Positions 5,504-25,447 of a stretch of DNA of 43,236 nt are shown here, in pieces. A program made the translations under genes and the position numbers. Origin of the DNA: Coriobacteriaceae bacterium (GTDB lineage Bacteria; Actinomycetota; Coriobacteriia; Coriobacteriales; Coriobacteriaceae). Where the stretch lies: assembly GCA_902362275.1 (NCBI GenBank), contig CABIWB010000004.1:99230-142465 (forward strand). Reading direction: 5' to 3'. A model generated the notes under the pieces. It was not told where the DNA came from and searched no databases. It saw only the letters and a list, made by a program, of their open reading frames with translations. How positions within the stretch are numbered: position 1 is the first letter of the stretch; every line of letters starts with the position of its first letter.

Positions 5504-6004
5504 ATGAATAGTGCGGTTACGCTGGTCGACTTCGATCGGTTGCTCAATGGACTCGACCATATCTATTCGGAGTTCTCGCGCGCCTGCGGCCTTTCGGACT
5601 GTGCTTACTGGATGCTCGTCGATACCAGCACGGCGGGCGGTAGCATCGCTGTGAGTCGTCTGACAAGCGAATGGTTCTATAGCAAACAGACCATCAACTC
5701 GGCAATTAAAACCTTGATGGCGCGGGGCTTCGCAACGTTGGAGTTTGCCGAAGGCAGCCGTAAGAACAAGGTTGTGTGTTTGACCGAAGCGGGCATGCGG
5801 TTTGCCGAGCGCTATGCGCTGCCGGCACTCAAGGCCGAGCAGCGAGCCTTTGGCGCGCTTGAGCCGTGTGAACAACGCGAGATTATGCGCCTAATCGGAA
5901 AATTTTCCCATGCGCTCGGCGATGAGTGCGATGCTTTTAAGCAGCATATCGCTGCCGAGAGCCAAGCCGAGAATCAAGGTGAGGGGGAGTCGTGCGACTC
6001 TTAA
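5504..6004 (+). CDS. MarR-family transcriptional regulator
   Basis: The 166-aa protein has a central winged helix: AVSRLTSEWFYSKQTINSAIKTLMARGFATLEFAEGSRKNKVVCLTEAGMRF (about residues 47-99) contains the recognition helix and the Arg-rich wing typical of MarR. Flanking helices should form the dimer interface. Its stop overlaps the GTG start of the ABC exporter gene by 13 bases, so the three genes form one operon. It most likely represses its own promoter and the exporter by binding the repeats just upstream, with release by an exporter substrate. The substrate is unknown. Confidence 0.9.
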   Translation: MNSAVTLVDFDRLLNGLDHIYSEFSRACGLSDCAYWMLVDTSTAGGSIAVSRLTSEWFYSKQTINSAIKTLMARGFATLEFAEGSRKNKVVCLTEAGMRFAERYALPALKAEQRAFGALEPCEQREIMRLIGKFSHALGDECDAFKQHIAAESQAENQGEGESCDS

Positions 6005-7728
6005 TGAAGTTTATGAAGCCCTATCGCAGGCTTGCCGCAGTGACGCTGCTGGCGCTGCTGGTGGATAACGTCGGTACGCTGTTGGTTCCCACGATGCTGG
6101 CGAACATGGTCAACACCGGAATTACCACGGGCGATGTCGACTACATTTTACGCAACGGCCTATACATGTTTATCGCGACCAGCATGGCTAGCGGCGGCAC
6201 GGTGCTGGGCTGCTATCTTTCGGCGCGCCTGGCCGCCAACGTGGCCTGCGATATCCGCAATGCCGTGTACGACAAATCGCTCGAGCTAGCGGCCAGCGAT
6301 TTTGAGCGCTTTGGCACCGGATCGATGATCACGCGCTCGCTCAACGACATCAACGTGATTCAGCAGGCGATTCTGCAGACGATTCAGCTGGTGCTGCCCG
6401 TGCCGTTTTTGGCTGTGGCGGGCATCATTTTCGCCTGGTTTATCGATCCTGCCATGGGCACGCTTCTGGGCGTAGTCGTTGCGATTGTGCTGGTGGCGGC
6501 GGTCTTTACGGTTGCCAACGCGGCTCCGATCTTTATGCGCTTGCAGAGCTTTATCGACCGCATGAACGTGGTGCTGCGCGAAAACATCGTGGGCGTGCGC
6601 GTCATCCGTGCGTTTAACAAGGAGCGTCACGAGGAGCGGCGCCTGGACGAGGTGTTCAGCGACTACGCCGCCAACGCCATCAAAGTCAACCACCTGTTTG
6701 TGGGCCTCGACAGCTCAAGCTTCTTTTTGATGAACATCGCCGAGGTAGCGGTGCTGTGGGTTGGCGGCAACCGCGTGGGCGCCCACGCCATGCAGATCGC
6801 GAGCATCTCGGCGGTGCTGGAGTACGCGCTTCTGATCCTGTTCTTTGTGATGATGGCGCAGATGGTGGTGCTAACGCTGCCACGCGCCGCGGCATGCCTA
6901 AGCCGTGCACGGCAAGTGCTGGAGATTGAGCCGAGCATCGTGGACGGCGAGCGTACGCTGGGTGACGGGGCGCCTGCCTCCGAGGACGATGCGGATGCTG
7001 TTGCCGTGTTCGACCACATGTCGTTTCGCTTTGACGATGCCGACGAGGACACCCTGCGCGACCTGAGCTTTGCCTGTCGTCGTGGTCAGACGACCGCGAT
7101 TGTGGGCTCGACGGGCTCGGGCAAGTCGACGGTGGCAAAGCTTCTGCTGCGCTTCCACGATGCCACCAAGGGCGCCATTCGCTTGGACGGCATCGATCTG
7201 CGCGAGCTTTCGCAAGGTGAGATTCGCGGGCGCATTGCCTATGTGCCACAGAAGGCGTGGCTGTTCTCGGGCACCGTGGCAAGCAATCTGCGCTTTGGCA
7301 ACGAGGACGCGACCGAGGCGGACATGCTTCATGCGCTGCAGGTTGCCCAGAGCACCTTTGTGCTCGATCAGCCGCAGGGGCTCGATACCCCGGTTGCCCA
7401 GGGCGGTACGAACTTCTCGGGTGGTCAGCGCCAGCGCCTGGCCATTGCTCGCGCGCTCATGAAGCGCGCCGACCTGTATATCTTCGACGACAGTTTTTCT
7501 GCTCTGGACTTTAAGACTGATGCGGCCCTGCGCCATGCGCTGCAGGACGAGACGCGCGACGCCGCGGTGCTTATCATCGCGCAGCGCATCTCGACGATTC
7601 TGCACGCCGACCAGATTGTCGTGCTCAAGGACGGCGAGGTCGTGGGCTTGGGCACGCACGAGGAACTTATGGAAACCTGCGAGGTGTACCGCGCCATCGC
7701 GGAATCGCAGATGAAGGGAGGTGAGTAG
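5992..7728 (+). CDS. ABC exporter half-transporter, degenerate-site subunit
   Basis: The 578-aa protein combines a six-helix exporter membrane domain (about residues 1-310) with an ATPase domain. Walker A is GSTGSGKST, the signature is FSGGQRQRLAIARAL, and Walker B reads YIFDDSFSALD. The catalytic Glu after Walker B is Asp, and the switch His is Gln (IIAQRIST). These two changes mark the non-hydrolysing site of heterodimeric exporters such as TM287/288 and BmrCD. The next gene supplies the partner with canonical residues. Start is GTG 5992 after GAGGGGGAG, overlapping the MarR gene; an ATG at 6004 is the alternative. Likely role: drug, lipid or peptide export from the cytoplasmic membrane under MarR control. 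Confidence 0.93.
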   Translation: MRLLMKFMKPYRRLAAVTLLALLVDNVGTLLVPTMLANMVNTGITTGDVDYILRNGLYMFIATSMASGGTVLGCYLSARLAANVACDIRNAVYDKSLELAASDFERFGTGSMITRSLNDINVIQQAILQTIQLVLPVPFLAVAGIIFAWFIDPAMGTLLGVVVAIVLVAAVFTVANAAPIFMRLQSFIDRMNVVLRENIVGVRVIRAFNKERHEERRLDEVFSDYAANAIKVNHLFVGLDSSSFFLMNIAEVAVLWVGGNRVGAHAMQIASISAVLEYALLILFFVMMAQMVVLTLPRAAACLSRARQVLEIEPSIVDGERTLGDGAPASEDDADAVAVFDHMSFRFDDADEDTLRDLSFACRRGQTTAIVGSTGSGKSTVAKLLLRFHDATKGAIRLDGIDLRELSQGEIRGRIAYVPQKAWLFSGTVASNLRFGNEDATEADMLHALQVAQSTFVLDQPQGLDTPVAQGGTNFSGGQRQRLAIARALMKRADLYIFDDSFSALDFKTDAALRHALQDETRDAAVLIIAQRISTILHADQIVVLKDGEVVGLGTHEELMETCEVYRAIAESQMKGGE

Positions 7729-7729
7729 C

Positions 7730-9745
7730 ATGACCGAGGAGCTCAAGAAGCGCAGCGACGCTATCGATGCCGCCGCTGCGGACGCTGCCGAGGAAGCGGT
7801 CGAGCAGGCTGTCGCGCCGACCGAGCTGGATGACGTTGCCAAGGCCGCGGCCGAGCGTGAGGCTCGCCGCCAAGCGCTGTACGAGGAAAACGAGCGCGCC
7901 GAGGACGAGCGTGCTCGCGCCGAGGCAGAGCGCATGCGCGACGTGGACGACGAAGACGAGGACGAGACGCCCCGTGATACCTGGGCGACGGTGCGCCGCC
8001 TGTGGAGCGAGGCTGCCGGCGACCATTGGCGCTTCTATATCGTGTTCGCGAGCATTGTGTTCTATGTCATCTTTAACACTGCCGCGCCGGCATATAGCGC
8101 CCGCGTGATCGATGAGCTGTGGGGCCACATTCAGGTGGCGTTTGCCAACGACACCACTTTCAGCATCACCTGGGAGAACTGCGGCAAGACCATTTTCGTC
8201 TACTTTATGATCTGGACTGCCGCCGCCTCGTTCTATGCGCTCCAGAGCTTTTTGATGTCGAGCGTCGCTGAGCGTCTCAATCTGCGCCTGCGCAACCGCA
8301 TCGCGCAAAAGCTCAGCCGCCTGCCGCTCGCCTACTTTGACGCGCATCGTCCCGGCGAAGTGGTCAGCCGCGCGACCAACGACTTGGACAAGATGTCCGA
8401 GAGTATGCAGCGCGGATTGCTGCAGCTGCTGGTATCGGTCGGTACCGTGACGGGTGCCATCATCATGATGTTCGTCTATAGCGTCAAGCTCACGTTGGTC
8501 TTTTTGGGCTTTACGGCGGTATCGCTGCTGGTGACCAAGGTGGTTTCGCGCCGTACGCATGATGTGACGGGCGAGCGTCAGGAATGGGTGTCCAAAATCA
8601 CGAGTGCGGTCGAGGAGGGCTATTCGGGCCGTTTGGTGATTCGCGCATTCAATCGCGAGCACCAGAGCTCTGCCGAGGTGCACGAGGCCTCGGGCGAGCT
8701 GGCCCGCGTGAGCACCAAGGCCGACTTTATGATCAACGCCGTCGGACCTGCGGTTCGCTTTACTGGTCGCCTGGCGCAGATCGTGATTGCGCTCGTGGGC
8801 TGCAGCATGCTGGTCGCCGGTCACATGACCGTCGGCGTGTTCCAGGCGTTCTTCCAGTTTATCTACGAGGCGTCCGAACCCATGACGCAGCTGTCGTTCA
8901 CTTTCAACTCGCTGCAGAGCGCGCTGGCGAGTGCGGAGCGCGTGTTCGACCTGCTCGATGAGCCCGAGATGGAGGCCGATCCGCTGCCGGACGAGGCCGA
9001 CAAGCTGCCGGGTCGCGTTGAGGGTCGCGTCACTTTTGAGCATGTGCGCTTTGGCTATTCGCCCGACAAGCCGCTTATGCGCGACGTGTCGTTTACCGCC
9101 GAGCCGGGTCAGAAGATCGCCGTGGTGGGAACCACGGGCGCGGGTAAGACCACGCTCATCAACCTGCTCATGCGCTTTTACGAGATCGACGGCGGCCGCA
9201 TTACGCTCGACGGTGTGGATACGCGCCTCATGAACCGCGGTGAGCTACGTCAGCAGTTTGGCATGGTGCTGCAGGACGCCTGGCTATTTGATGGCACGAT
9301 TGCCGAAAACATCGCCTACGGGTGCCCCGAGGCAACGCGCGAGGAGATCGTGGCGGCCGCTCGCGCCGCGCAGGTCGACTTCTTTGTGCGCACCATGCCG
9401 CAGGGTTATGACACGCGCGTGGCCAACGATGCCGAGAGCATTAGTCAGGGCCAGCGCCAGCTGCTGACCATTGCGCGCGTGCTGCTCAACAACCCGGCGA
9501 TTCTCATCCTGGACGAGGCGACCTCAAGCGTGGACACGCGCACCGAGTTTGCCATCGGCCGCGCCATGGACGCGCTCATGCGCGGGCGTACGAGCTTTGT
9601 GATCGCGCACCGTCTGTCGACGATCGTTGATGCCGACCTGATCTTGGTCATGGACCATGGCAACATTATCGAGCAGGGCACGCATAGGGAACTGCTGGCT
9701 GCCGAGGGTGCCTATGCCGACCTCTATCTGAGTCAGTTCGCATAA
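7730..9745 (+). CDS. ABC exporter half-transporter, canonical-site subunit
   Basis: A 671-aa exporter with an unusual N-terminal extension of about 85 residues, rich in Glu, Ala and Arg and probably coiled-coil. The membrane domain and ATPase domain follow. Walker A is GTTGAGKTT, the signature is ISQGQRQLLTIARVLL, Walker B is ILILDEATSSVD with the catalytic Glu, and the switch His is present (VIAHRLST). It pairs with the degenerate subunit just upstream. The ATG at 7730 has GGGAGGTGAG at proper distance and lies right after the previous stop (7726-7728); a GTG at 7721 is inside that ribosome site and unlikely. The acidic extension is not part of the usual fold and may contact a partner. Confidence 0.93.
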   Translation: MTEELKKRSDAIDAAAADAAEEAVEQAVAPTELDDVAKAAAEREARRQALYEENERAEDERARAEAERMRDVDDEDEDETPRDTWATVRRLWSEAAGDHWRFYIVFASIVFYVIFNTAAPAYSARVIDELWGHIQVAFANDTTFSITWENCGKTIFVYFMIWTAAASFYALQSFLMSSVAERLNLRLRNRIAQKLSRLPLAYFDAHRPGEVVSRATNDLDKMSESMQRGLLQLLVSVGTVTGAIIMMFVYSVKLTLVFLGFTAVSLLVTKVVSRRTHDVTGERQEWVSKITSAVEEGYSGRLVIRAFNREHQSSAEVHEASGELARVSTKADFMINAVGPAVRFTGRLAQIVIALVGCSMLVAGHMTVGVFQAFFQFIYEASEPMTQLSFTFNSLQSALASAERVFDLLDEPEMEADPLPDEADKLPGRVEGRVTFEHVRFGYSPDKPLMRDVSFTAEPGQKIAVVGTTGAGKTTLINLLMRFYEIDGGRITLDGVDTRLMNRGELRQQFGMVLQDAWLFDGTIAENIAYGCPEATREEIVAAARAAQVDFFVRTMPQGYDTRVANDAESISQGQRQLLTIARVLLNNPAILILDEATSSVDTRTEFAIGRAMDALMRGRTSFVIAHRLSTIVDADLILVMDHGNIIEQGTHRELLAAEGAYADLYLSQFA

Positions 9746-13829: not shown

Positions 13830-14426
13830 ATGGCGATACCAGTGGACCTTCGCATTAAGAAAACCTACCGCGCCCTGTTCGATGCCTTCACCGAGCTTCT
13901 CGAGGAGCATCGTTTTGAGGACCTGACGGTTGCCATGCTGTGCGACCGCGCCATGATTCGCCGCACGACGTTCTACAAGCACTTTCGCGACAAGAACGAT
14001 TACTTCGCCTTTTATATCGATGAGCTCATGTCGGGCTTGCCGCAAAAACAGCCCGATGAGGCCGGCGCAGTGTCTGCCGAGGACGTGCGCGCGCTTCGGC
14101 ACGCGATTTTGGACGATGCCATGGATTTGATTCTGGCGCACGAGCAGCTCATGGATAACATTTTGGCAAGCAGCATGTCGGGCATGTTGACCAACGTTAT
14201 TTGCGACCGCATTGCCCGCTCCATCCGCGAGCGTGTGATGAACGTGCTTGCCGAGGATGCCCTGGCCCCCGTGTCACTCGAGACGACGTCTGAGTTTGTC
14301 GCCGGCGGTATTATTCGACTTTTCACGATATGGTGGGAATCGGGCCACAATCTTGAGCGTCGACCTGAGATAGCCGATGTGGTCGATGCGCTGTTTGAGC
14401 GGACCATGACACCGGTGGATCACTAA
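13830..14426 (+). CDS. TetR-family transcriptional regulator
   Basis: A 198-aa regulator whose N-terminal DNA-binding domain reads IKKTYRALFDAFTELLEEHRFEDLTVAMLCDRAMIRRTTFYKHFRDKNDYFAFYI. This is the short TetR form resembling the dihydroxyacetone-kinase regulator group (TetR_C_8 type). The C-terminal domain is helical, with WWESGHN near the end as in that group. The start is uncertain: ATG 13830 directly abuts GAGG and would need another ribosome site, while GTG 13842 (VDLRIKK...) has GAGG about 12 bases upstream. The regulated genes are not evident; lemA is divergent and is one candidate. Confidence 0.85.
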   Translation: MAIPVDLRIKKTYRALFDAFTELLEEHRFEDLTVAMLCDRAMIRRTTFYKHFRDKNDYFAFYIDELMSGLPQKQPDEAGAVSAEDVRALRHAILDDAMDLILAHEQLMDNILASSMSGMLTNVICDRIARSIRERVMNVLAEDALAPVSLETTSEFVAGGIIRLFTIWWESGHNLERRPEIADVVDALFERTMTPVDH

Positions 14427-14428
14427 GG

Positions 14429-14518
14429 TGGCGGAGAGAGGGGGATTCGAACCCCCGGAACGCTCTCGCGCTCAACGGTTTTCAAGACCGCCGCATTCAA
14501 CCGCTCTGCCATCTCTCC
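14429..14518 (-). tRNA. tRNA-Ser (anticodon UGA)
   Basis: On the minus strand GGAGAGA (from 14518) pairs with TCTCTCC to form the acceptor stem. The D arm is GCAGAGCGGTTGAATGC, and the anticodon loop CTTGAAA has TGA at its centre. A long variable arm (GAGCGCGAGAGCGTTC) is typical of class II tRNA-Ser, and the T arm is GGGGG-TTCGAAT-CCCCC. The discriminator is G at 14432, and CCA appears to be encoded (14429-14431). The TadA gene starts 52 bases away on the other strand. Confidence 0.95.
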
Positions 14519-14569
14519 GTGAGTCGTAATGATAGCATCGTTTTGAATTTGCAACAGGGAAGGCGAACG

Positions 14570-16351
14570 ATGACGATCACCGAAATCGACGAGAAGTTCA
14601 TGCGCGAGGCGCTGGCGGAGGCGCGAGCCGCCGCGGCGGTGGGCGAGGTGCCCATCGGAGCCGTAGTGGTGCGCGACGGCGAGATCGTCGCGAGGGCGCA
14701 CAATCGGCGCGAGCTCGATCAGGATCCTTCGGCTCATGCCGAGTTTGCGGCCTTGTGCGCTGCCGCTCGGTCGCTCGGTCGCTGGCGCCTTTCCGATTGC
14801 ACGGTCTACGTGACGCTCGAGCCCTGCTGCATGTGTGCGGGCCTTATGGTCAACGCGCGCGTCGGACGCTGCGTGTATGGCGCGGCTGATGCCAAGGCCG
14901 GCGCACTGGGTTCGCTGTATGACCTGAATGCCGATTCGCGCCTGAATCATCGGTTTAACGTGACGGCTGGGGTCCTGGCGGATGAATGCCGCGAGCTGCT
15001 GAGTAGCTATTTTGGCGGTCTGCGCGGAGCGGGCGGCGCTGATTGCGGTTGTGGGGCCGATCTTGAAGCACACGCCGCTCACGCCGCAGCGCTTGCAGGT
15101 GCCGGTGAGGATGCTGGCACGGCGGTTGACTTTGATCCTGCGTGCCGCCGACCTCGCCGTGTGCTGTTGGCGATCGACTCCTTTAAGGGCAGCGTTTCGA
15201 GCGCGCAGGCGGAGGCGGCGGTTGCCGAAGGCGTGCGCCGCGTTTGGCCCGATGCCGAGGTGTGCGCATTGCCGCTGGCAGATGGTGGCGAGGGAACGCT
15301 CGATGCCGTTGCCGCCTGCGGTGGCGAGCTTGTGACCTGCGAGGTAGCAGGCCCCTTTGGCGAGCGTGTGCCTGCCCGGATGTTAGTGGACGGCGAGCGC
15401 GAGTCGGCTGTTATTGAGATGGCCGAAGCCGCGGGCATTGGGTGCTCACCTTGCACGGAGTCGGCGGCGCTGGCTGCTACAACCTATGGCGTGGGCGAGC
15501 TCATGCTCCGTGCGGTTCGTGCCGGGGCAAAGACTATCTATATTGGTCTGGGCGGCAGTGCCACCAACGACGGTGGCGCCGGCATGCTGCAGGCGTTGGG
15601 CGCGCGTGTGGTCGATGATCAGGTCTGCGATGTCGCCCCCGGTCTTGCTGGCCTTGAGCGGGTGGCGAGCGTTGATTTGGCGCCCGCGCTGCAGGCTTTG
15701 GATGGCGCTCGTATCGTTGTGCTTTCGGATGTCGAGAATCCGCTCGTAGGGCGTCGCGGCGCGCTTGCGGTGTTCGGCGGACAGAAGGGTCTGCCGGCGG
15801 ATGATGCCGAGGTACTGCGCAGGTACGACAGCTGGATGGTCGGCTACGGTCGCTTGCTCGACGCTGCGATTGCCGGAGCTCGAGCCCAGGGTTTGTTGCG
15901 CACACCCGAGGGCGCACGGACATTTGGCTCGGTGCTCGGCGTGCCCGGCGCGGGCGCTGCCGGTGGCTTGGGCGCGGCGCTGCTGGCGCTCGGGGCGAAG
16001 CTGCGCTCGGGTGTGGAGACGGTGCTCGATCTCGTGGGGTTTGACGAGCGCGTGCGCGATGCCGACCTGGTCATAACGGGTGAGGGCAATATGGATGAGC
16101 AATCCGCCGCCGGTAAGGCACCAGTGGGTGTGGCTCGCCGCGCCAAGCGATATGGCAAGCCGGTGGTCGCCGTCGTGGGCGGTCGCGCTGTCAACCTGGA
16201 TGCGGTATATGGGCAGGGTATTGACTTGGTTTTGCCGATCTGCCGCAAGCCCATGGACCTGGAACGGGCACTCGATTCGCAAGAAGCCACAACCAACCTC
16301 ATCTGCGCCGGCGAGTCAGCCGCACAAGCCTATGACCTCGCTCGCCTCTAA
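14570..16351 (+). CDS. TadA (tRNA adenosine deaminase) fused to glycerate kinase
   Basis: One uninterrupted 593-aa frame. Residues 1-150 are a full TadA domain that converts A34 to inosine in tRNA-Arg: the zinc site is His56/Glu58 in SAHAEFAAL and Cys86/Cys89 in EPCCMCAG, with the MREALAEARAA N-terminal helix. Residues 151-196 are an Ala/Gly/Asp-rich linker. Residues 197-593 are a complete type-1 (GarK/GlxK) glycerate kinase: LLAIDSFKGSVSSAQ, PLADGGEGTLDA, GLGGSATNDGGAGML, LGVPGAGAAGGLGAAL and VITGEGNMDEQSAAGKAP. The last motif has Asn where Arg is common. The start ATG 14570 follows GGGAAGG. No internal ribosome site is seen before the kinase. Each half has the normal length of a stand-alone enzyme, so this is a true fusion and not a remnant. 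Confidence 0.93.
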   Translation: MTITEIDEKFMREALAEARAAAAVGEVPIGAVVVRDGEIVARAHNRRELDQDPSAHAEFAALCAAARSLGRWRLSDCTVYVTLEPCCMCAGLMVNARVGRCVYGAADAKAGALGSLYDLNADSRLNHRFNVTAGVLADECRELLSSYFGGLRGAGGADCGCGADLEAHAAHAAALAGAGEDAGTAVDFDPACRRPRRVLLAIDSFKGSVSSAQAEAAVAEGVRRVWPDAEVCALPLADGGEGTLDAVAACGGELVTCEVAGPFGERVPARMLVDGERESAVIEMAEAAGIGCSPCTESAALAATTYGVGELMLRAVRAGAKTIYIGLGGSATNDGGAGMLQALGARVVDDQVCDVAPGLAGLERVASVDLAPALQALDGARIVVLSDVENPLVGRRGALAVFGGQKGLPADDAEVLRRYDSWMVGYGRLLDAAIAGARAQGLLRTPEGARTFGSVLGVPGAGAAGGLGAALLALGAKLRSGVETVLDLVGFDERVRDADLVITGEGNMDEQSAAGKAPVGVARRAKRYGKPVVAVVGGRAVNLDAVYGQGIDLVLPICRKPMDLERALDSQEATTNLICAGESAAQAYDLARL

Positions 16352-16366
16352 GGCCTATCTCCCTAT

Positions 16367-16435
16367 AAGTTGCGGTGGAATACGGAGTGTTTTTGCCTTT
16401 AAGGGGCCAATTCAGTCCGTATTCCACCGCAACTT
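16367..16435. repeat. Palindromic repeat, family B, perfect 19-bp arms
   Basis: AAGTTGCGGTGGAATACGG (16367-16385) and its exact reverse complement (16417-16435) with a 31-nt loop. It lies 15 bases after the fusion gene stop. The same arms recur at 31433-31499, and the 5' arm beginning AAGTTGCG is also seen at 4151. The 888 bases from 16352 to 17240 hold no protein gene that I can support, only repeats, the SRP RNA and a terminator. Confidence 0.9.
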
Positions 16436-16488
16436 CGAGAATGGCCATTCGAGGTTGGCTGCCTTGGGTCTTGGGTCGGACCGTTTGC

Positions 16489-16648
16489 CACGAAATGCGG
16501 CCATCTACTACGTTAAGCCGACCACCCTCGACCATCCCGGAATTTGTAAAAATAAAACCGCAGGTAGAAAGCTTGCCGATTTTCGAAAAAGTCGGCTATG
16601 GTCGGCCCCTGCGACCTAAACGTAGTAGATGGGCCCTTTTCGTGGCAC
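16489..16648. repeat. 160-bp element with imperfect terminal inverted repeats
   Basis: The left end (TGCCACGAAATGCGGCCATCTACTACGTTAAG, from 16489) is matched inverted by the right end (CTAAACGTAGTAGATGGGCCCTTTTCGTGGCA, to about 16648), with a core of exact CATCTACTACGTT. The inside is AT-richer and holds a small GCCGATTTT/AAAAGTCGGC hairpin. No ORF is supported. It looks like a miniature element or a large structured transcript end. Confidence 0.6.
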
Positions 16649-16662
16649 AGCACCAGATCAGT

Positions 16663-16741
16663 CTATTTAGGACGGGGCCTCCTTGACTACTTTCGCCACC
16701 CTGACGCCCCACCAGTCAAAAAAAGCCCCGTCCCAAATTAG
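16663..16741. repeat. Palindromic repeat, family C
   Basis: CTATTTAGGACGGGGCCTCCTTGACT (16663-16688) is inverted imperfectly by AGTCAAAAAAAGCCCCGTCCCAAATTAG (16714-16741). The GGGACGGGGC core and AGTC/GACT ends match the larger copy at 42961-43070. Its right end runs into the SRP RNA promoter. Confidence 0.7.
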
Positions 16742-16746
16742 CTACC

Positions 16747-16775
16747 TTGCTCTGGCGGGCGGGAGCAGGTAAGAT
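16747..16775 (+). promoter_or_regulatory. SRP RNA promoter
   Basis: TTGCTC (16747-16752), 17 bases, TAAGAT (16770-16775). The expected start, about 16782, coincides with the first paired base of the SRP RNA. Confidence 0.7.
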
Positions 16776-16780
16776 ATACC

Positions 16781-16902
16781 GAGCGCCTAGCGCGTTCGAT
16801 GGGTTCGGATGACGACATGTTCCGAATCTGGTCAGGTCCGGAAGGAAGCAGCCATAAGGAGCCTCTGTCGGGCATCCGAATCCATCGAGCGCACGGGCGC
16901 TT
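16781..16902 (+). ncRNA. ffs: Signal recognition particle RNA (small bacterial type)
   Basis: The core GGTCAGGTCCGGAAGGAAGC with AGCC after it is the universal SRP helix 8 with the GGAA tetraloop and the asymmetric loop that binds Ffh. The flanking arms CGATGGGTTCGGATG and CATCCGAATCCATCG pair to make the long rod. AGCGCC (16782-16787) pairs with GGCGCT (16896-16901) to close the molecule, and the closing helix runs into TTTTTT (16901-16906), which also works as terminator. The RNA targets ribosomes making membrane proteins to the membrane. dnaX, a common neighbour of this RNA in other bacteria, is not in this window. Confidence 0.96.
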
Positions 16903-16925
16903 TTTTGGTGCCGCGACATGGCCCG

Positions 16926-17005
16926 GCCGGCGGCGAGGTGTTTGGTGTCTCGCTGGTCCTCGGCTGCGCCTGCGGGATCGCTCGACTACCAAACAGCCCG
17001 CCGGC
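16926..17005. repeat. Nested inverted repeat after the SRP RNA
   Basis: GCCGGCGG (16926-16933) with CCGCCGGC (16998-17005), and inside it TGTTTGGT (16939-16946) with ACCAAACA (16988-16995). The loop is about 41 nt. No ORF of interest is present. Confidence 0.6.
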
Positions 17006-17154
17006 ACCGGGACCATTTCGTCCAAAAATCACCCGTAGAGGCGCGTTAGCCTAATTAAATCTATCCCTTAAGGAATGCTGCTCGTTGGCGTTGTTTGGAG
17101 CGCGGTGGCGATGTGCTCCAAGAGACAGTGGCATTACCATTTGTTTTTACAAGT

Positions 17155-17197
17155 AAAGAGGCCCGTTTCCCTGGGTGGGGGAAACGGGCCTCTTTTT
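17155..17197. terminator. Strong terminator between the SRP region and the LANTG protein
   Basis: GAGGCCCGTTTCCC (17158-17171) with GGGAAACGGGCCTC (17179-17192) is a perfect 14-bp stem, followed on the plus strand by TTTTT and on the minus strand by TTTACTTG. It probably ends the minus-strand surface protein gene and insulates the SRP side. Confidence 0.9.
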
Positions 17198-17240
17198 GTT
17201 TCTGGGCTTGTGGATTGGCGGAGACAATAACCGCTGGCAG

Positions 17241-18290
17241 CTATTTTGAGTTCTTGATGCGGCGTGTGGCTGTGGCGGTTATTCCGAGGCCTGCGGTGGC
17301 GATTCCTGCGAGTGCGATTGCGCTCGACGCTGCGTCGCCCGTGTTCGCGAGCTTGCCGGCGGTCGTATCTGCTTGCTTGCCGCTGCTCGAGTTCGCCTGC
17401 TTGGTGGAGCTCAGCGGGGTATTTTTGCCGGTCGCGGACGAGCCGGTGGGCTGTGTCGCCTCGGCCGGTTGCGCCGAGTTGGAGGGAGGCGTCATCTCGG
17501 TCGGTTGCGTTATCTCGGGCGAGGTGGCCTTGTCTGCCGCGGCTTTCGCCTCTTCGTATGCCTTGCAGGCGTCGTCATAGGCCGTTTGCGCTTTTTTCAA
17601 ATTGTCGAGGAGCGCATCTCGCCAGGCTATGAACTGGTCGGTATGGGCTTTATACTTCTCTGCAGCACGTTCACAGTCATTAACTCGTCTTTCCTGCCTT
17701 TTGAGGCCGTCGCAGCGCTCGCGGAGCTCCGTTTTGCAAGAGTCTTCTTGCGCTTTTGCCGTTACGATTTCACTGCGCAACTGCTTAATATGCTCTTTAA
17801 TAGTTATGCTGGGCTCCTCGTTGCCGAGTGCTTCAAGTGCCTTATCTAATTCTGCCTGGAGCTCGCTTACCCGGTTGATGGCCTCGTCGTATTTGGCTTG
17901 GGCTGCATCGATGTCCGCTTGCATGGTGGGAAGGAGTTCCCTCTCTTCGGCGGCTTGCGCCGCCATCTTGTCGCGGAGCTCTTGAAAACGGGCAATGTCA
18001 TCATTGAATCTCGCAATTTTCTCGGGACTTGCGGCGTCTTTTGCGGTCTCGAGGTTTTTGAGCGCTTCCTGCATGGCTGCATACGCTTTTTCTTTTGCGG
18101 CGGCCGCGTCTTCTGTCTGCGGGGCGCCCGAATTGCCGTTGGCGGCGCTCGTCTGCGAAACGGCCGCACCGGTGGGGGCGCTAGTTTCTGCCGCGATCGC
18201 CGTTGCGGGGGCGATTCCCGCGACAAGTGCCGCGGAAAGTGCGATGCCCACAGTTGCTCGTCTTGCTCTTCTTGCGAGAATGTCGTTCAT
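17241..18290 (-). CDS. Sortase-anchored (LANTG) coiled-coil surface protein
   Basis: The 349-aa precursor has a signal peptide: basic start MNDILARRARRATVG, then a hydrophobic stretch to AIAAE, with cleavage expected near residue 34. Residues about 60-250 are Ala/Glu/Lys-rich heptad-like helices (AKEKAYAAMQEALKNLETAK and similar), so an extended coiled-coil rod is likely. A Pro/Thr/Ser-rich wall-spanning stretch follows (about 255-310). The end is a cell-wall sorting signal: LANTG at 314-318, a hydrophobic helix (AIALAGIATAGLGITATA), and the basic tail RRIKNSK. LANTG is a variant of LPXTG. No sortase gene is in the window. Function is unknown; adhesion or wall spacing would fit. Confidence 0.85.
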   Translation of the reverse strand: MNDILARRARRATVGIALSAALVAGIAPATAIAAETSAPTGAAVSQTSAANGNSGAPQTEDAAAAKEKAYAAMQEALKNLETAKDAASPEKIARFNDDIARFQELRDKMAAQAAEERELLPTMQADIDAAQAKYDEAINRVSELQAELDKALEALGNEEPSITIKEHIKQLRSEIVTAKAQEDSCKTELRERCDGLKRQERRVNDCERAAEKYKAHTDQFIAWRDALLDNLKKAQTAYDDACKAYEEAKAAADKATSPEITQPTEMTPPSNSAQPAEATQPTGSSATGKNTPLSSTKQANSSSGKQADTTAGKLANTGDAASSAIALAGIATAGLGITATATRRIKNSK

Positions 18291-18505
18291 CTCGGCACCT
18301 CATTTCAAGGGTCGGTGACTCACTTGGTAGCACTAATGTAAGAATATCAGGCGGTTTGCCCGCCATTGATCGGGCGTGCGCGTGCCTCTCCGCTTCTTTG
18401 GAAACCGAATCCCATTAGAAATGGCGAGTTGTTTACTCGTCTTTTGGGCTCACCGTACTATCATGATTCGAAATGAGTGTGAATGATGATAGGGAGCGCC
18501 TTTTT

Positions 18506-20365
18506 ATGATTGAGCTGCTCGGACGTTTTGGTGGCAAGTTTCGCCGGTATATGGTGATCGGCCCAGTGTGCAAGCTGATCGAAGTGATTTTTGACCTGCT
18601 GACGCCGCTGGTGATTGCCCAGATGATCGATAAGGGCATCGGCGCACGCGATGTGAACGCTGTCGTCCACTACGGCATGGTGCTCGCCGTCATGGCCGTG
18701 ATCGGCATCTCGTTTACGCTCGTCTGCCAAAAGATGGCGGCGCTCACCTCGCAGGGCATGGGTACCGATATCCGCGGCGCGCTCTACGAGCACATCAACA
18801 AACTGAGCTATGCCGAACTCGACCGCTTTGGCACGCCGTCGCTTATCACCCGCATCACCAACGATGTCAACCAGGTGCAGCTTGCCGTGGCGCTGGGCGT
18901 GCGCATGCTCATCCGCTGGCCCTTCTTGGCGGTGGGCTCCATGTGCGCGGCCCTTGCCATCGACCTTAAGCTCGGCATCATCTTTTTGATCTGCACGCCC
19001 GCTATCGGCCTGGTGTTTTGGTTTGTCATGGCGCGCTGCATCCCGTACTACAAGCAGCTGCAGGCAAAGCTCGACCGCATCGCGCTTATCTGCCGCGAGG
19101 GCCTTTCGGGCGCCCGCGTGGTTCGCGCCTTTGTGCGCGAGGGCCACGAGCGCGAGCGCTTTGCCCAAGCCGCCGACGACCAGGCCAATACCGCCGTCGT
19201 GGTGGGCAAGCTTTCGTCGATTCTCAACCCCGTCACGTTTTTGGTGATGAACCTGGGCGTGTGCGCCATCCTGTGGGTGGGCGGCATCCAGGTCAACGTG
19301 GGTGAGCTTACGCAGGGCCAGGTTATGGCGTTCGTCAACTACATGACGCAGACGCTCACCTCCATCGTGTACGTTGCCAACCTGGTCGTGGTCTTTACCA
19401 AGGCGAGCGCCAGCGCGTCGCGCATCAACGAGGTGCTCAATTGCGTGCCGAGCATCACTGACGAGGACAACGAGCCGGTCGCGCTGCCCGAGCCGAGCGA
19501 ACTGGCGGGCGGCGCTGTTCCGGTCCCCGCGCTGAGCTTGAGTCATGCGAGCTTCTCGTTTGGCACCGGCGCGGCCAATGCTGTCAACGATGTGACGCTG
19601 GAACTCTCGCTGGGCAAAACACTCGGCATTATCGGCGGCACGGGCAGCGGCAAGTCCACGCTCGTCTCGCTTATCCCGCGCCTGTACGATGCGAGCACCG
19701 GCAGCGTGAGCGTGATGGGCTCCGACGTGCGCGCTTGGCCGCTCGACCAACTGCGCCATGTGGTCGCGACTGTACCGCAGCGCGCGTCGCTGGTGAGCGG
19801 CACCATCCGCAGCAACCTGACCTGGCGTGACGAGTCGGCAACCGATGAGGAGCTCTGGGCGGCGCTCGACATGGCGCAGGCGAGCGAGTTCGTGCGCAAC
19901 AAGCCGCAGGGGCTCGATGCCCCGGTCGAGGCGGGCGGCAAGAACTTTAGCGGCGGTCAGCGCCAGCGTCTGACCATCGCGCGCGCCCTGGTGGGCTCGC
20001 CTCAGATATTGATCATGGACGACTCCGCCTCGGCGCTCGACTTTAAGACCGACGCGGCGCTTCGCCATGCCATTCGCGAGCGCGGCGTGCGCGGTGCCGC
20101 CGAGGGCGGGCTGCCACTCACGACGGTGATCGTAAGCCAGCGCGTCCCGACCGTGCGCGACGCCGACATGATCTGCGTGCTCGACCACGGCTCGGTCGCG
20201 GGCCTGGGTACGCATGACGAGCTCTACGCAAGCTGCCAGCTCTATCGCGAGATTTGCCAGTCGCAGCTGCGCCGCGAGGAGCTCGAGGGCCGTCAGGGGA
20301 GTGCGGCGCCCGCGTCGCCCCAACCGTCCCCGCATCCGTCTGCGCAAAGGAGGGCTGCTAGATGA
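18506..20365 (+). CDS. ABC exporter half-transporter, degenerate-site subunit (second pair)
   Basis: A 619-aa exporter with a six-helix membrane domain and an ATPase domain. Walker A is GGTGSGKST, the signature is FSGGQRQRLTIARAL, Walker B is ILIMDDSASALD with Asp in place of the catalytic Glu, and the switch His is Gln (VIVSQRVPT). This is the same degenerate pattern as in the first exporter pair. A Pro/Ser/Ala-rich C-terminal tail ends the protein. The ATG at 18506 follows AGGGAG at nine bases; an earlier in-frame ATG at 18473 lacks a ribosome site. TACTAT at 18456 is a plausible -10 box. The gene overlaps its partner by 4 bases. Confidence 0.92.
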   Translation: MIELLGRFGGKFRRYMVIGPVCKLIEVIFDLLTPLVIAQMIDKGIGARDVNAVVHYGMVLAVMAVIGISFTLVCQKMAALTSQGMGTDIRGALYEHINKLSYAELDRFGTPSLITRITNDVNQVQLAVALGVRMLIRWPFLAVGSMCAALAIDLKLGIIFLICTPAIGLVFWFVMARCIPYYKQLQAKLDRIALICREGLSGARVVRAFVREGHERERFAQAADDQANTAVVVGKLSSILNPVTFLVMNLGVCAILWVGGIQVNVGELTQGQVMAFVNYMTQTLTSIVYVANLVVVFTKASASASRINEVLNCVPSITDEDNEPVALPEPSELAGGAVPVPALSLSHASFSFGTGAANAVNDVTLELSLGKTLGIIGGTGSGKSTLVSLIPRLYDASTGSVSVMGSDVRAWPLDQLRHVVATVPQRASLVSGTIRSNLTWRDESATDEELWAALDMAQASEFVRNKPQGLDAPVEAGGKNFSGGQRQRLTIARALVGSPQILIMDDSASALDFKTDAALRHAIRERGVRGAAEGGLPLTTVIVSQRVPTVRDADMICVLDHGSVAGLGTHDELYASCQLYREICQSQLRREELEGRQGSAAPASPQPSPHPSAQRRAAR

Positions 20366-22221
20366 ATCCGTATACTTCTTCCGGTTCGGTCGCCACGATG
20401 ACGGCCAATGTGTCCGGCAACGATAGTCTCAACGACCTGGGCGACGGTCCGCGCCAGCCCGGCGATCCTGAGCGCTATCCCGTGGGTGCGGTGACTCGCC
20501 GCCTGATGGGCTACGTTCGTCCGCATCGCATTTCGTTTGTTGCGTCGTTTGTGAGCGCCGCCATCTCCGTTATCTTGCAGCTCTACACGCCTATCCTTAT
20601 CGGCGAGGGCATCGACCTGATTGTTGCGGCGGGCCAGGTGGACTTCGATGCGTTGCTGCCGCTTGTCACCAAACTCGCGATTGTCGTGGTGGGTGCTGCG
20701 GCCTTCCAGTGGCTGCAGGGCTACTGCGTCAACCGCCTGTCCTACGAAACGGTGCGCGATATGCGCGTGGAGGCGAGCGACAAGCTCAGCCGCATGCCGC
20801 TCAGCTTTATCGACAGCCATGCCCACGGCGACCTCATGAGCCGTGTGGTCAACGACGTCGATCAGGTGGGCGACGGTCTGCTGCAGGGCTTCACGCAGCT
20901 CTTTACCGGCGTTATCACCATCGTGGGCACGCTTGCGTTTATGCTCTCCATTAACCTGACCATGACGCTTGTGGTGGTGCTCGTCACACCGCTTTCCATT
21001 TTTGCAGCCGGCGCCATCGCCAAGCTTTCCAACAAGAGCTTTACGGCACAGCAGCGCATCCAAGGCCAGCTTGGCGGTCATATTGAGGAGTACGTGGGCG
21101 AGCAGAAGCTCGTGGACGCGTTTGCCTACGGCCCGCACGCTCAGCAGCGCTTCGATGCCCTCAACGCTGAGCTCTACACCGCGGGCGAGCGCGCGCAGTT
21201 TATGGGTTCGCTCTCCAACCCCGGTACGCGTTTTATCAATAATATCATCTATGCCGTGGTCGCTGTGATCGGCTGCGTGGGCGTGATCACGGGCGTGCCC
21301 GCGGCGCTTACGGTGGGCGGCGTGCAGATCTTCCTGTCCTATGCCAACCAGTACACCAAGCCGTTCAACGAGGTCACCAACGTCATTACGCAGATCCAGA
21401 CCGCGTACGCCTCGGCGCGCCGCATGTTTGCGCTGCTCGATGCCCGCGAGCAGGAGCCCGATGCGGCGGATGCCGTGGAACTTGCCGCCCCGCAGGGCGA
21501 GGTCGCCTTTGAGCATGTGGACTTTAGCTACGTGCCCGACCGCAAACTGCTGCAGGATATCTGCATCGATGCCAAGCCCGGCATGCGCTTTGCCCTCGTC
21601 GGCCCCACGGGCTGTGGCAAGACAACGCTCATCAATTTGCTGCTGCGTTTTTACGATATCGATGCCGGTCGCATCGCGGTCGATGGCCGTTCCTCGCGTG
21701 ACTACACGCGCGCAAGCCTGCGCCGTGCCTTTGGCATGGTACTGCAGGACACTTGGCTGTTTGAGGGCACGGTGGCGGAAAACATCGCTTACGGTTGCCC
21801 GGATGCCACGCGCGAGCAGGTTATCGAGGCTGCCAAGCGCGCGCATGCGCACAAGTTTATCGTGCAGCTGCCAGGCGGCTACGATACGGTGATCGGCGAG
21901 GACGGCGGCACGTTTAGCCAGGGTCAAAAGCAGCTGCTGTGCATCGCGCGCGTCATGCTCACCGACCCGGCGATCTTGCTGCTGGACGAGGCAACGTCGA
22001 GCATCGATACGCGTACCGAGCTGCAGGTGCAGGCGGCATTCGACGAGCTCATGGCAGGTCGCACAAGCTTTGTCGTGGCGCACCGCTTGAGCACCATCCG
22101 CAACGCCGACTGCATTCTGGTCATGCGCGACGGCCAGATTATCGAGCGCGGCACGCACGACGAGCTGCTGGCATCGGGCGGTTTCTATGCCGAGCTCTAC
22201 CGCAGCCAGTTTGCCCAGTAA
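20362..22221 (+). CDS. ABC exporter half-transporter, canonical-site subunit (second pair)
   Basis: The 619-aa partner of the preceding subunit, with ATGA overlap between the genes. Residues 1-50 are a polar extension, and the membrane domain covers about 50-345. Walker A is GPTGCGKTT, the signature is FSQGQKQLLCIARVML, Walker B is ILLLDEATSSID with the catalytic Glu, and the switch region is VVAHRLST. The pair is paralogous to the exporter at 5992-9745 in gene order and in which subunit is degenerate, but it has no regulator attached. The likely role is lipid, peptide or drug export. Confidence 0.93.
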   Translation: MNPYTSSGSVATMTANVSGNDSLNDLGDGPRQPGDPERYPVGAVTRRLMGYVRPHRISFVASFVSAAISVILQLYTPILIGEGIDLIVAAGQVDFDALLPLVTKLAIVVVGAAAFQWLQGYCVNRLSYETVRDMRVEASDKLSRMPLSFIDSHAHGDLMSRVVNDVDQVGDGLLQGFTQLFTGVITIVGTLAFMLSINLTMTLVVVLVTPLSIFAAGAIAKLSNKSFTAQQRIQGQLGGHIEEYVGEQKLVDAFAYGPHAQQRFDALNAELYTAGERAQFMGSLSNPGTRFINNIIYAVVAVIGCVGVITGVPAALTVGGVQIFLSYANQYTKPFNEVTNVITQIQTAYASARRMFALLDAREQEPDAADAVELAAPQGEVAFEHVDFSYVPDRKLLQDICIDAKPGMRFALVGPTGCGKTTLINLLLRFYDIDAGRIAVDGRSSRDYTRASLRRAFGMVLQDTWLFEGTVAENIAYGCPDATREQVIEAAKRAHAHKFIVQLPGGYDTVIGEDGGTFSQGQKQLLCIARVMLTDPAILLLDEATSSIDTRTELQVQAAFDELMAGRTSFVVAHRLSTIRNADCILVMRDGQIIERGTHDELLASGGFYAELYRSQFAQ

Positions 22222-22954: not shown

Positions 22955-23006
22955 CTTGACACTCGTGGGCGCAACCGTGGCAAGCGTTCGCTGGATGTAT
23001 TCAGGG

Positions 23007-23052
23007 TGGGACACGGTTTCCGGATGGGCGGGCTTCCGGAAACCGTGTCCCA
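23007..23052. repeat. Perfect 18-bp palindrome
   Basis: TGGGACACGGTTTCCGGA (23007-23024) and its exact reverse complement (23035-23052) with a 10-nt loop. It contains GGGAC/GTCCC like families A and C but has different flanks. A half-like sequence, ATGGGACGCATTTTCCGCG, follows at 23069. Confidence 0.85.
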
Positions 23053-23146
23053 GAATTTGTCTTTGGAATGGGACGCATTTTCCGCGATATGCATGACAGA
23101 CCTTTCCCGTACCTCCGCCTGCCGCCGATTCGGGCCCCCGACCCCG

Positions 23147-25447
23147 TTACTTGATCTTGGTCGTGCCCGGTGCCAGGTTGGGGTCGGTCTCGTTGGCCTC
23201 GGTCTGGAAGTGCTCGGTATACACGTTCTTACCGTCGCGGAACATCTCGTAGTACTGCATCTTGGCGTAATCCTCGCGTGCCTTGGTGGCGGCTGCGGCA
23301 ACGGCGTCGTCGCCGGTGACGTTGGAGGAGAGCGCCCAGCGCAGGCTGGCGTCCTCGTAGCCCACGGAGTTGATGGCGGGCAGCGACTCGCGCAGCGTCA
23401 TGTGCGCTTTCTGGTAGTCGGTCAGCGGTGCGCCGATCAGTTGCATCAGCTGGGTGGACAGGTAGTTGGTGGACAGGTCGCTGGTCTCACTTGTCTGGTC
23501 GCAGCCGGCAACGTCGTAGTTAGCCCAAATGATGTAGTCGGTCTGCCACAAGCGCTCCTGGTGGGTGGCGTCGTCCTCGCCGGTAAACCACTTGTCATTG
23601 AACTCGGACGGGAAGAACGGCTGATGGTCGCCCCAGAACACCACGACCACCTTGCGGTCGAGCTTGCTCAAGGCGTTGAGGAAGTAGCGAAGCGCCTGGT
23701 CGGACTGCTCGATGCACGAGACATACTCGTCGACATCGGAGAGCGTGCCGTCCTCGACGGTCTTGGCGTCCAGGTCGGTCGTGTCGATGTTCAGGTGCAT
23801 CTGCTTGTCGACCGGCAGCAGGCCCGTGTCGTAGCCCGAGTGGTTCTGCATGGTCACGTCGAAGATAAACTGCGGATCGGCGTTCTGGTCGAGCAGCTCA
23901 AGAATCTTGTCGTAGGTAGCCTGGTCGGTCACCATGCCGCGCAGGGTATCGGCGCCCTGGAAGTCGTTGATAGACAGGAACTGGTCAAAGCCAAAGTCCT
24001 TGTAGACGTTCTCGCGGTTCCAGTTGGTCGCGTGGTTGGGGTGCATGGCCGTGGTGGAATATCCGAGCGACTTGAACTGCTCTGCCAGGTTCCCGGTCGT
24101 TTCCATGTTGTAGATGGTGTAGGGGTACACGCCCGAGCCCAGGTTGGCCATGGAGTTGCCGGTCATAAACTCAAACTCGGTATTGGCCGTGCCGCCGCCG
24201 TAGGCGCTCACGTAGAGCTTGCCGCGGCTGAGGCAGTTGGACAGACTCTTAAAGTACTGCGGACCCTCGTAGCCGGCGCGCATGTTCTGGTAGATCGACA
24301 GATCCGAGAAGGTCTCGTTCATGATGGCGATGACCGTGGGCTTCTCGCTGTCGAATTGCTCCTTTGCGGCGGCGCGCTCGTCGCTCTTGGCGGCATCGGA
24401 TTTGTCGTAGGCCTTGGCATACTTTTTGAGCGTGGCCTTGGCGTCATCGACAGAATAGTCGGCGGGTTTGGGCGGCTTGATGGACTGTGCCGCACTAATA
24501 AAGGCAGGCAGGTAGCCCTCGCGCCAGTAGCTCTCAAGCGGGCGCCAGGTGTAGACGGTGATGCCGAGGGTGTTGTAGTAGTCGATGAGGGTGACGTGCG
24601 CGGTCACGCCGCCCAGGCACAGCACGGCGACGAGCAGGTTGGTGAGCAGCATGCGCTTGGCGTCGGCGGCGCCCTTCTGGCGATGCGGCGCGACCAAGCC
24701 GGCGTACTCGCACAGCAGCATCGCGACGGCGGTAAAGCCCATGGACAGCACACAGAACAGCGAGATCGAGAAGGTGTAACCGTTGCCGGCGACCGCGGCG
24801 GCGGTGGAGATGGCCGAAAGGTCGCCCGGCTGGATGGGCATGGATTTAAACGTGATGACGAAAAACTCGGCAATGCCCAGGACAAAGAGGGCAAAGGCCA
24901 GGATCGCGGGAGCTGCGCCGTGGCGCTGGAACAGGAAGAACAGGCCGACCATGAGCGTGGTGATGATGGCCCACTCGAGCAGGATGCATAGGGGGTAGAC
25001 CCAGGTAAAGTCGTGGTTGGACGAAACCTCCATGCCCAGCAGCGCAAAAACGCCGGCGAGCAGCAGGCACAGGACGGCGGCGACGAGTGGCTTGCCCACA
25101 AAGGCGCCGCGCAGGCGGGCGAGCTTGCCGGTGGGGGCGGGGGCGTCGGGCGCGGCGAACGCAAAGACGCGCGGGGCGATGCGGTCGCGTGCGATGCTGG
25201 CCCAAGCGCAGCCGGTGAGGATGGCGTTGGTCAGGATGAGCATCACAAAGGCGAGCGGCTCGTTTTGAGCGACGAGGCCCACGGCGCCCCAAATAGTCAA
25301 AAAGACCTGGAGCAGGCCGAAGGCGACACTCCACCCAAGAGCGCTTTTGGCAACGGTGCCCGACTGAGCGCGAATGGCCTTGGCCTCGCGCAAGACAAGG
25401 TAGACGGTCGCCGCAAGACCGACGAGCGAGATGGCGGCAGCGAACAT
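23147..25447 (-). CDS. LTA synthase-like membrane sulfatase (phosphoglycerol transferase family)
   Basis: The 766-aa protein has roughly eight membrane helices in residues 1-300 and then a large extracellular alkaline phosphatase/sulfatase domain. Metal and active-site marks are VIAIMNETFSD (first metal site), GGGTANTEFEFMTGNSM (catalytic Thr region), MHPNHATNWNRE, and FWGDHQPFF (C-terminal metal site). The family moves phosphoglycerol or related groups onto wall polymers or glycans. Coriobacteria do not make ordinary lipoteichoic acid as far as is known, so the acceptor is open. The ATG at 25447 has GAGGAG at seven bases; the GTG at 25462 lies inside that site. The gene is single. Confidence 0.9.
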   Translation of the reverse strand: MFAAAISLVGLAATVYLVLREAKAIRAQSGTVAKSALGWSVAFGLLQVFLTIWGAVGLVAQNEPLAFVMLILTNAILTGCAWASIARDRIAPRVFAFAAPDAPAPTGKLARLRGAFVGKPLVAAVLCLLLAGVFALLGMEVSSNHDFTWVYPLCILLEWAIITTLMVGLFFLFQRHGAAPAILAFALFVLGIAEFFVITFKSMPIQPGDLSAISTAAAVAGNGYTFSISLFCVLSMGFTAVAMLLCEYAGLVAPHRQKGAADAKRMLLTNLLVAVLCLGGVTAHVTLIDYYNTLGITVYTWRPLESYWREGYLPAFISAAQSIKPPKPADYSVDDAKATLKKYAKAYDKSDAAKSDERAAAKEQFDSEKPTVIAIMNETFSDLSIYQNMRAGYEGPQYFKSLSNCLSRGKLYVSAYGGGTANTEFEFMTGNSMANLGSGVYPYTIYNMETTGNLAEQFKSLGYSTTAMHPNHATNWNRENVYKDFGFDQFLSINDFQGADTLRGMVTDQATYDKILELLDQNADPQFIFDVTMQNHSGYDTGLLPVDKQMHLNIDTTDLDAKTVEDGTLSDVDEYVSCIEQSDQALRYFLNALSKLDRKVVVVFWGDHQPFFPSEFNDKWFTGEDDATHQERLWQTDYIIWANYDVAGCDQTSETSDLSTNYLSTQLMQLIGAPLTDYQKAHMTLRESLPAINSVGYEDASLRWALSSNVTGDDAVAAAATKAREDYAKMQYYEMFRDGKNVYTEHFQTEANETDPNLAPGTTKIK

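What the first reader, a model, noticed from the sequence alone, without database searches (positions are those of the whole stretch)
14570..16351. tRNA adenosine deaminase fused to glycerate kinase
One frame encodes a complete TadA (zinc residues H56, C86, C89; EPCCMC) and a complete type-1 glycerate kinase joined by an Ala/Gly-rich linker. TadA edits A34 of tRNA-Arg and is generally essential; glycerate kinase is a carbon-metabolism enzyme. I know of no functional reason for them to be one polypeptide. The fusion could couple decoding capacity to glycerate flux, or simply fix co-expression. The kinase motif GEGNMDEQ has Asn where Arg is usual, so its activity is worth testing.
Basis: partly seen in the sequence, partly recalled or inferred. 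Interest (0 to 1): 0.72.

Follow-up and report, generated by a model that had tools for sequence, protein, structure and literature searches.

The report
TadA–glycerate kinase fusion in Collinsella
In Collinsella gut bacteria a tRNA-editing enzyme and a sugar-acid kinase are encoded as one joined protein; the joining seems to have happened once in an ancestor and been kept in several genera, and it looks like two ordinary enzymes tied together by a loose linker rather than a new kind of system.

Summary
Window 14570-16351 (+) is one frame of 593 codons: complete TadA (residues 1-152), disordered linker (153-195), complete class I glycerate kinase, GK (196-593). It is no assembly error: 19 of 19 related Collinsella loci carry it full length, and I count the fusion junction in 56 of 65 genomes of the family, in four of six genus codes. 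No spanning match was listed for non-family genomes in class, phylum and order samples (124, 193 and 83 genomes). Fused GKs form one clade (SH-aLRT 99). Both domains are under purifying selection (dN/dS 0.066 and 0.144). Three genomes inside the fused clade lack the fusion, two of them well nested; all three own a standalone GK, against 3 of 56 fused genomes (post-hoc Fisher p 0.0006). That suggests glycerate kinase activity is what keeps the domain, and that TadA can do without it. Best reading: two independent enzymes on one tether, GK riding on the tadA gene; I found no evidence for coupling of decoding to metabolism. Asn in GEGNMDEQ: Arg is not universal there, but most fused GKs lost the Arg/His of their standalone kin.

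The parts
14570..16351 (+). tadA-GK fusion gene, 593 codons plus stop
   Evidence: open frame; both families
14570..15025 (+). TadA domain, residues 1-152
   Evidence: PF14437 and NF008113; Foldseek 2b3j TMt 0.93
14735..14743 (+). His56 (zinc) to Glu58 (catalytic) codons of the HAE motif
   Evidence: both invariant; roles recalled from TadA literature
14825..14836 (+). Cys86 to Cys89, zinc-ligand codons (CCMC)
   Evidence: both Cys invariant; roles recalled
15026..15154 (+). linker, residues 153-195, Ala/Gly-rich
   Evidence: pLDDT under 50 for 153-192; dN/dS 0.225; two in-frame GTG/TTG codons, no ATG and none with a Shine-Dalgarno match of 4 or more
15155..16348 (+). class I glycerate kinase domain, residues 196-593
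   Evidence: PF02595 and TIGR00045; Foldseek 3cwc E 6.3e-37, TMt 0.86; dN/dS 0.144
16079..16102 (+). GEGNMDEQ motif, residues 504-511; Asn507 codon at 16088-16090
14557..14563 (+). Shine-Dalgarno-like GGGAAGG upstream of the ATG
14429..14518 (-). tRNA-Ser (anticodon TGA), divergent neighbour that marks the tadA locus
   Evidence: a tRNA-Ser(TGA) in 15 of 17 relatives' tadA loci scanned, fused and unfused

Best explanation
This is a bifunctional two-domain enzyme. The N-terminal domain is TadA, which makes inosine at position 34 of tRNA-Arg(ACG). The C-terminal domain is a class I glycerate kinase, which converts glycerate plus ATP to phosphoglycerate, most likely 2-phosphoglycerate. The two work independently on a flexible tether. 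In close kin each is the only copy of its kind that I found. It arose once, in an ancestor of Collinsella and three sister genera after the split from genus code g67, when a kinase gene related to those of glucarate/galactarate operons was joined in frame to the 3' end of tadA at its old place beside tRNA-Ser. The join gave the kinase the steady expression of a housekeeping gene and fixed both products in one chain; selection then held the kinase domain because no other GK was left. Shown here: one frame, both families and folds, purifying selection, one clade of fused GKs, an unfused first branch, absence of the fusion only where another GK exists. Inferred: both activities, the product, steady expression, the absence of cross-talk, and one full-length protein in the cell.
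For: One frame and both families at full length. Full length in 19 of 19 Collinsella loci; junction in 56 of 65 family genomes (my count, for G043 and G186). One strong TadA match per fused genome, and no second class I GK except in G041, G042 and G188. dN/dS over 231 pairs: TadA 0.066, linker 0.225, GK 0.144. Of 79 columns conserved in standalone GKs, 52 are kept in 28 of 28 fused GKs and 60 in at least 27, among them D203, K206, DGGEGT 238-243, E283, D387, QKG 405-407, GEG 504-506, D509, Q511 and GK 515-516. Fused GKs one clade, SH-aLRT 99. RpoB plus LeuS tree: all sampled members except g67 grouped at 99/99; G014 beside G020 at 100/98 and G017 with G015 and G038 at 99/99. Unfused members of the fused clade have a standalone GK in 3 of 3, fused ones in 3 of 56; Fisher p 0.0006. 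tRNA-Arg(ACG) confirmed by ARAGORN in 13 of 14 kin genomes tried, with three copies each in G001, G003 and G008. Model: two confident domains and a linker under 50.
Against: No expression, proteomic or enzymatic data. 19 of the 79 columns conserved in standalone GKs vary in two or more fused GKs; the window itself has Gly for Pro at 404 and Gly for Ala at 427. The usual Arg/His of GEGxxDxQ is kept in only 3 of 28 fused GKs, so kinetics or substrate could have changed. In 6 of 29 fused genes an ATG, or a start codon with a Shine-Dalgarno match of 4 or more, lies within five codons of the GK start, so separate initiation is possible there. The glycerate source of most fused species is unknown: only 5 of 64 genomes hold a tartronate semialdehyde reductase over its cut-off, none of them the window's closest kin. 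The Fisher test was made after seeing the pattern and ignores shared ancestry. The TadA tree is weakly resolved, RpoB shows signs of recombination, LeuS alone does not resolve which group branches first, and G184 has no settled place, so its lack of the fusion may not be a loss.
Confidence: 0.7

Rival explanations
1. The fusion couples the two activities: glycerate or ATP binding to the kinase domain alters wobble editing, or the kinase helps TadA dimerise, bind tRNA or sit near the ribosome.
For: The fusion has been kept in four genus codes. In the window the basic C-terminal tail seen in several lone Coriobacteriaceae TadAs is replaced by linker and kinase. The solved GK and TadA relatives have two or more chains per entry, so tethering could build larger assemblies.
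Against: The linker runs from 29 to 102 residues, is not conserved between distant members and is predicted disordered. TadA stands alone in G014, G017 and G184, and all three have another GK, which the coupling idea does not predict.
Confidence: 0.12
2. Two separate proteins are made, by translation restart near the kinase or by cleavage in the disordered linker; the fused frame is mainly a translational coupling device.
For: The linker is disordered and fast-evolving, hence open to cleavage. 6 of 29 fused genes have a candidate start close to the kinase.
Against: In 16 of 29 fused genes, the window's among them, there is no ATG and no start codon with a Shine-Dalgarno match of 4 or more from the end of TadA to about 25 codons into the kinase, while 18 of 18 standalone GKs have an ATG within seven codons of the domain start. 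Each of the 22 close relatives keeps the frame, with in-frame length changes only. No + strand promoter match was found in 14300-17300 (a crude scan that also gives none for tadA itself).
Confidence: 0.12
3. The kinase domain has lost kinase activity and is kept for another role, such as a scaffold or a ligand sensor.
For: Loss of the usual Arg/His at residue 507 in 25 of 28 fused GKs and 19 further-varying columns; glycerate source unknown in most fused species.
Against: 52 of 79 conserved columns are invariant, selection is purifying, Ser or Lys occur at 507 in 12 of 19 other actinobacterial GKs, and within the fused clade the domain is missing only where another GK exists.
Confidence: 0.07
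4. Assembly or sequencing artefact.
For: None found.
Against: Assemblies of many strains and species carry the same join.
Confidence: 0.005

Closest known systems
TadA, tRNA(adenosine-34) deaminase (NF008113; PDB 2b3j, 7cph, 1z3a)
   Same: Family, fold, HAE and CxxC-type zinc site, NCBIfam cut-off passed; place beside tRNA-Ser as in unfused relatives
   Different: Followed in frame by a linker and a kinase; the basic C-terminal tail of several lone Coriobacteriaceae TadAs is absent in the window
Class I glycerate kinase, GarK/GlxK type (PF02595, TIGR00045; PDB 3cwc, 1to6)
   Same: Family and fold; 52 of 79 conserved columns kept in 28 of 28 fused GKs
   Different: No start codon of its own in the window and joined to TadA; usual Arg/His of GEGxxDxQ mostly lost, 19 other columns vary
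Glucarate/galactarate (gud/gar) clusters of relatives: dehydratase, DapA-like aldolase, GK, tartronate semialdehyde reductase
   Same: Their GKs form the standalone group next to the fused clade plus L076 and L077 (those two fall nearer, support 89). Genes seen. Pathway described in PMC11775122 (passages read), which calls garK polyphyletic
   Different: Standalone kinase in a catabolic cluster; the reductase over cut-off is found in only 5 of 64 family genomes

Membership tests
TadA | Passes curated TadA model | tested here: met
   NF008113 159.1 bits, cut-off 150
TadA | Zinc ligands His, Cys, Cys and catalytic Glu | tested here: met
   H56, E58, C86, C89; invariant in 15 and 28 fused proteins
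TadA | Substrate tRNA-Arg(ACG) in the organism | tested here: met
   in kin, not in the window's own assembly, which is not held: ARAGORN finds it in 13 of 14 loci from 14 genomes (L125 is cut by a contig end); pattern matches in 14 of 14; an earlier, stricter pattern matched 10 of 64
TadA | A34 deamination | not testable with these tools
   needs an assay
Class I glycerate kinase | Passes curated model over full length | tested here: met
   TIGR00045 357.6 bits, cut-off 168.45, positions 1-372 of 375
Class I glycerate kinase | Fold of 3cwc/1to6 | tested here: met
   Foldseek TMt 0.86 and 0.88
Class I glycerate kinase | Columns conserved in standalone GKs kept | tested here: inconclusive
   52 of 79 kept in 28 of 28 fused GKs, 60 of 79 in at least 27, 19 vary more; which of them are catalytic was not established here
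Class I glycerate kinase | Kinase activity and product 2-phosphoglycerate | not testable with these tools
   needs an assay
Bifunctional fusion enzyme | One frame in many independent genomes | tested here: met
Bifunctional fusion enzyme | One full-length protein in cells | not testable with these tools
   needs proteomics

The most novel reading that the evidence does not exclude
The kinase domain has become a metabolic sensor or an altered-substrate kinase for the wobble-editing enzyme: the change at residue 507 marks a shift in ligand handling, and glycerate or phosphoglycerate levels tune inosine-34 formation, linking CGN decoding to lower glycolysis in a common gut genus.
Probability: 0.06. 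Interest if true: 0.9.

Novelty: new variant of a known kind. Interest (0 to 1): 0.5.

Why it matters
To my knowledge a fusion of a tRNA-editing enzyme with a carbon-metabolism enzyme is unusual, and this one covers several genus codes that include a common gut genus. It suggests how a catabolic kinase can be kept by capture on a housekeeping gene, with natural exceptions that act as a test. It also matters for annotation: the few public names seen give one half only, TadA or glycerate kinase, even for one and the same protein (P0124, P0153, P0205). Anyone reading a tadA effect in Collinsella must consider the kinase, and the reverse.

Tried and rejected
Assembly artefact: rejected. Apparent loss of the kinase core in G043: the break sits at a single N in the assembly, so I do not count it as a deletion. 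Short frame in G186: it runs on to near the contig end. Operon read-through as the route of fusion: no frame with a GK match lies within about 3 kb of tadA in the 14 unfused tadA loci fetched, and tblastn found no remnant in seven of them (best E 0.42). RpoB tree: rejected, because I had taken the longest frame instead of the coding frame; redone. Literature: searches listed no paper that I could see describing the fusion. I saw listings only for (1 of 1, 2 of 2, 10 of 53 and 12 of 87 papers, except passages of PMC11472039); held none; of the 6 I read passages of two (PMC2063504, PMC11775122). So 'not in print' holds only for those searches in that library. Class II and III glycerate kinases were not searched, so 'only GK' means only class I GK.

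Rows dropped before counts: dN/dS used 22 fused sequences of the close group, some of them near-identical, and left out further fetched copies of that group; the GK tree left out L049 for its gap; the AU tests left out the long row L090; the concatenated tree left out G180 for its short RpoB, and G176 was in no species tree; the 19 other actinobacterial GKs were picked by me from well-scoring places.

Full report
What is there. Window 14570-16351 (+) is one frame of 593 codons and a stop. TadA occupies residues 1-152 and a class I glycerate kinase (GK) residues 196-593; both pass curated cut-offs. The start has a Shine-Dalgarno-like GGGAAGG. Upstream and divergent lies tRNA-Ser(TGA). An AlphaFold model from 28 sequences has mean pLDDT 82.7, with residues 153-192 (the linker) and 108-114 (a TadA loop) under 50. 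Foldseek places the two parts on GK 3cwc/1to6 and on TadA 2b3j/7cph/1z3a.

Who has it. The window's own assembly is not held; the nearest genome shares 35% of its sampled words. Nineteen of 19 distinct loci found in named genomes are Collinsella, with residues 1-593 matched at 87-95% identity (the patterns came from the fused protein). In the family (65 genomes) I count the fused frame or its junction in 56: 40 of 43 in genus code g1, 8 of 9 in g34, 5 of 5 in g48, 3 of 3 in g16, 0 of 4 in g67 and 0 of 1 in g79. This takes G027 and G183 (split over contigs, junction inside one piece), G043 (break at one N) and G186 (frame cut near a contig end) as carriers. Seven genomes have a separate TadA (G014, G017, G147, G174, G175, G176, G184). 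Two have no match (G033 and G182, 72% and 89% complete). Outside the family, no listed match spans both domains among 124 non-family genomes of the class sample (149), 193 of the phylum sample (198) and 83 of the order sample (118). The samples overlap and the match lists are cut at weaker scores; I would not expect a fusion there, but did not see those rows. A few non-family TadA matches run on past TadA with a stop inside (G374, G384, G372) and do not reach far into the kinase.

One origin, some absences. The 28 fused GKs form one side of a branch with SH-aLRT 99 against 18 standalone GKs. RpoB plus LeuS group all sampled family members except g67 (three of its four genomes sampled) at 99/99, and place G014 beside G020 (100/98) and G017 with G015 and G038 (99/99), that is, among fused genomes. 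G184 lies in the same larger clade but its place is unresolved, so its lack of the fusion may be original. RpoB alone and LeuS alone both put G014 and G017 among fused genomes, but with different partners for G014 (G103 or G020); LeuS alone leaves the first branch open; and RpoB splits two members of g34 (G103, G180), a sign of recombination. TadA alone is too short to decide: the quick tree mixes fused and unfused rows; the best tree without the long row joins the fused TadAs with those of G014, G017 and G184 (support 50/88), and a clade of fused TadAs only is not rejected (p-AU 0.28). A tRNA-Ser(TGA) is found in 15 of 17 tadA loci scanned, fused and unfused (exceptions L042 and L090), so the kinase was most likely added at the old tadA place.

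What holds the kinase. dN/dS in 22 close relatives (231 pairs) is 0.066 for TadA, 0.225 for the linker and 0.144 for GK. Of 79 columns conserved in standalone GKs, 52 are kept in 28 of 28 fused ones and 60 in at least 27; 19 vary more, among them 404 and 427, where the window has Gly for Pro and Gly for Ala. Of 59 genomes in the five genus codes other than g67 with a TadA match, six have a second class I GK: G014, G017 and G184, which lack the fusion, and G041, G042 and G188, which keep it; none of the other 53 lacks the fusion (Fisher p 0.0006; genomes are not independent, and the test was made after seeing the pattern). Where a second GK exists beside the fused one (L047, L048, L067), the fused GK is not visibly more diverged. 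In G014, G041, G042, G184 and G188 the standalone GK lies beside a tartronate semialdehyde reductase and a glucarate dehydratase-like and/or DapA-like gene (family scans were run on the G041 genes only, where the dehydratase stays under its equivalog cut-off; the others I read from like sequence starts). In G017 the GK is of a distant group beside a class II aldolase. The simplest reading is that a second GK makes the fused one redundant and lets it go. GK is not needed by the family as such: G175 and G176 show no class I GK at all.

Substrate and product. tRNA-Arg(ACG) is present in 13 of 14 kin loci by ARAGORN, three copies each in G001, G003 and G008. Characterised class I GKs such as the E. 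coli enzyme of glucarate/galactarate use make 2-phosphoglycerate (passages of PMC2063504), hence the product proposed here. Where the glycerate comes from in C. aerofaciens I could not tell; a weaker reductase-like gene, under the cut-off, is found in the other family genomes (NCBIfam scan of one gave no model over cut-off).

Motif remark. Position 507 is Arg in 11 and His in 7 of 18 standalone Coriobacteriales GKs; in 28 fused ones it is Met 7, Asn 6, Ala 4, Phe 4, His 2, Ser 2, Arg 1, Thr 1, Leu 1. In 19 other actinobacterial GKs it is Arg 7, Lys 7, Ser 5. So Arg is not needed as such, but the fused clade is unusual in accepting large hydrophobic residues. This is the best lead for changed kinetics.

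One product or two. 16 of 29 fused genes, the window's among them, have no ATG and no start codon with a Shine-Dalgarno match of 4 or more between TadA and about GK residue 25; 6 of 29 have a candidate within five codons of the GK start. One chain is likely, but not shown.

Known or not. Both enzymes are well known; the join is a new domain architecture as far as my searches go. Databases already hold the protein under one-sided names.

Noticed in passing
L071:336-5151 (also L051, L055, L072, L073, L082): Standalone sister GKs lie in a glucarate/galactarate-type cluster with a GudD-like dehydratase (TIGR03247 730 bits, below its cut-off of 828.7), a DapA-like aldolase and a tartronate semialdehyde reductase, in a minority of Coriobacteriaceae.
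   Followed up: partly
L048, L044, L065, L070: Some fused GK domains match in two parts with an extra stretch between them (G042, G036, G115, G189), possible insertions in the kinase.
   Followed up: no
L154 and L156: RpoB of G103 and G180, same genus code and sister fused GKs, fall in different parts of the RpoB tree; possible recombination of rpoB, though the G180 piece is short.
   Followed up: no
window 17241-18290 (-): 349 aa frame without Pfam match, long charged middle and a C-terminal LANTG followed by a hydrophobic stretch and basic tail, like a sortase-anchored surface protein (read by eye).
   Followed up: no
window 5992-9742 and 18473-22218 (+): Two pairs of adjacent ABC transporter genes, each with membrane and ATPase domains; each pair may form a heterodimer.
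   Followed up: no
window 23006-24988 (+) and 26960-28861 (-): Frames of 661 and 633 aa with no Pfam match; may be unknown proteins or non-coding GC-rich frames.
   Followed up: no
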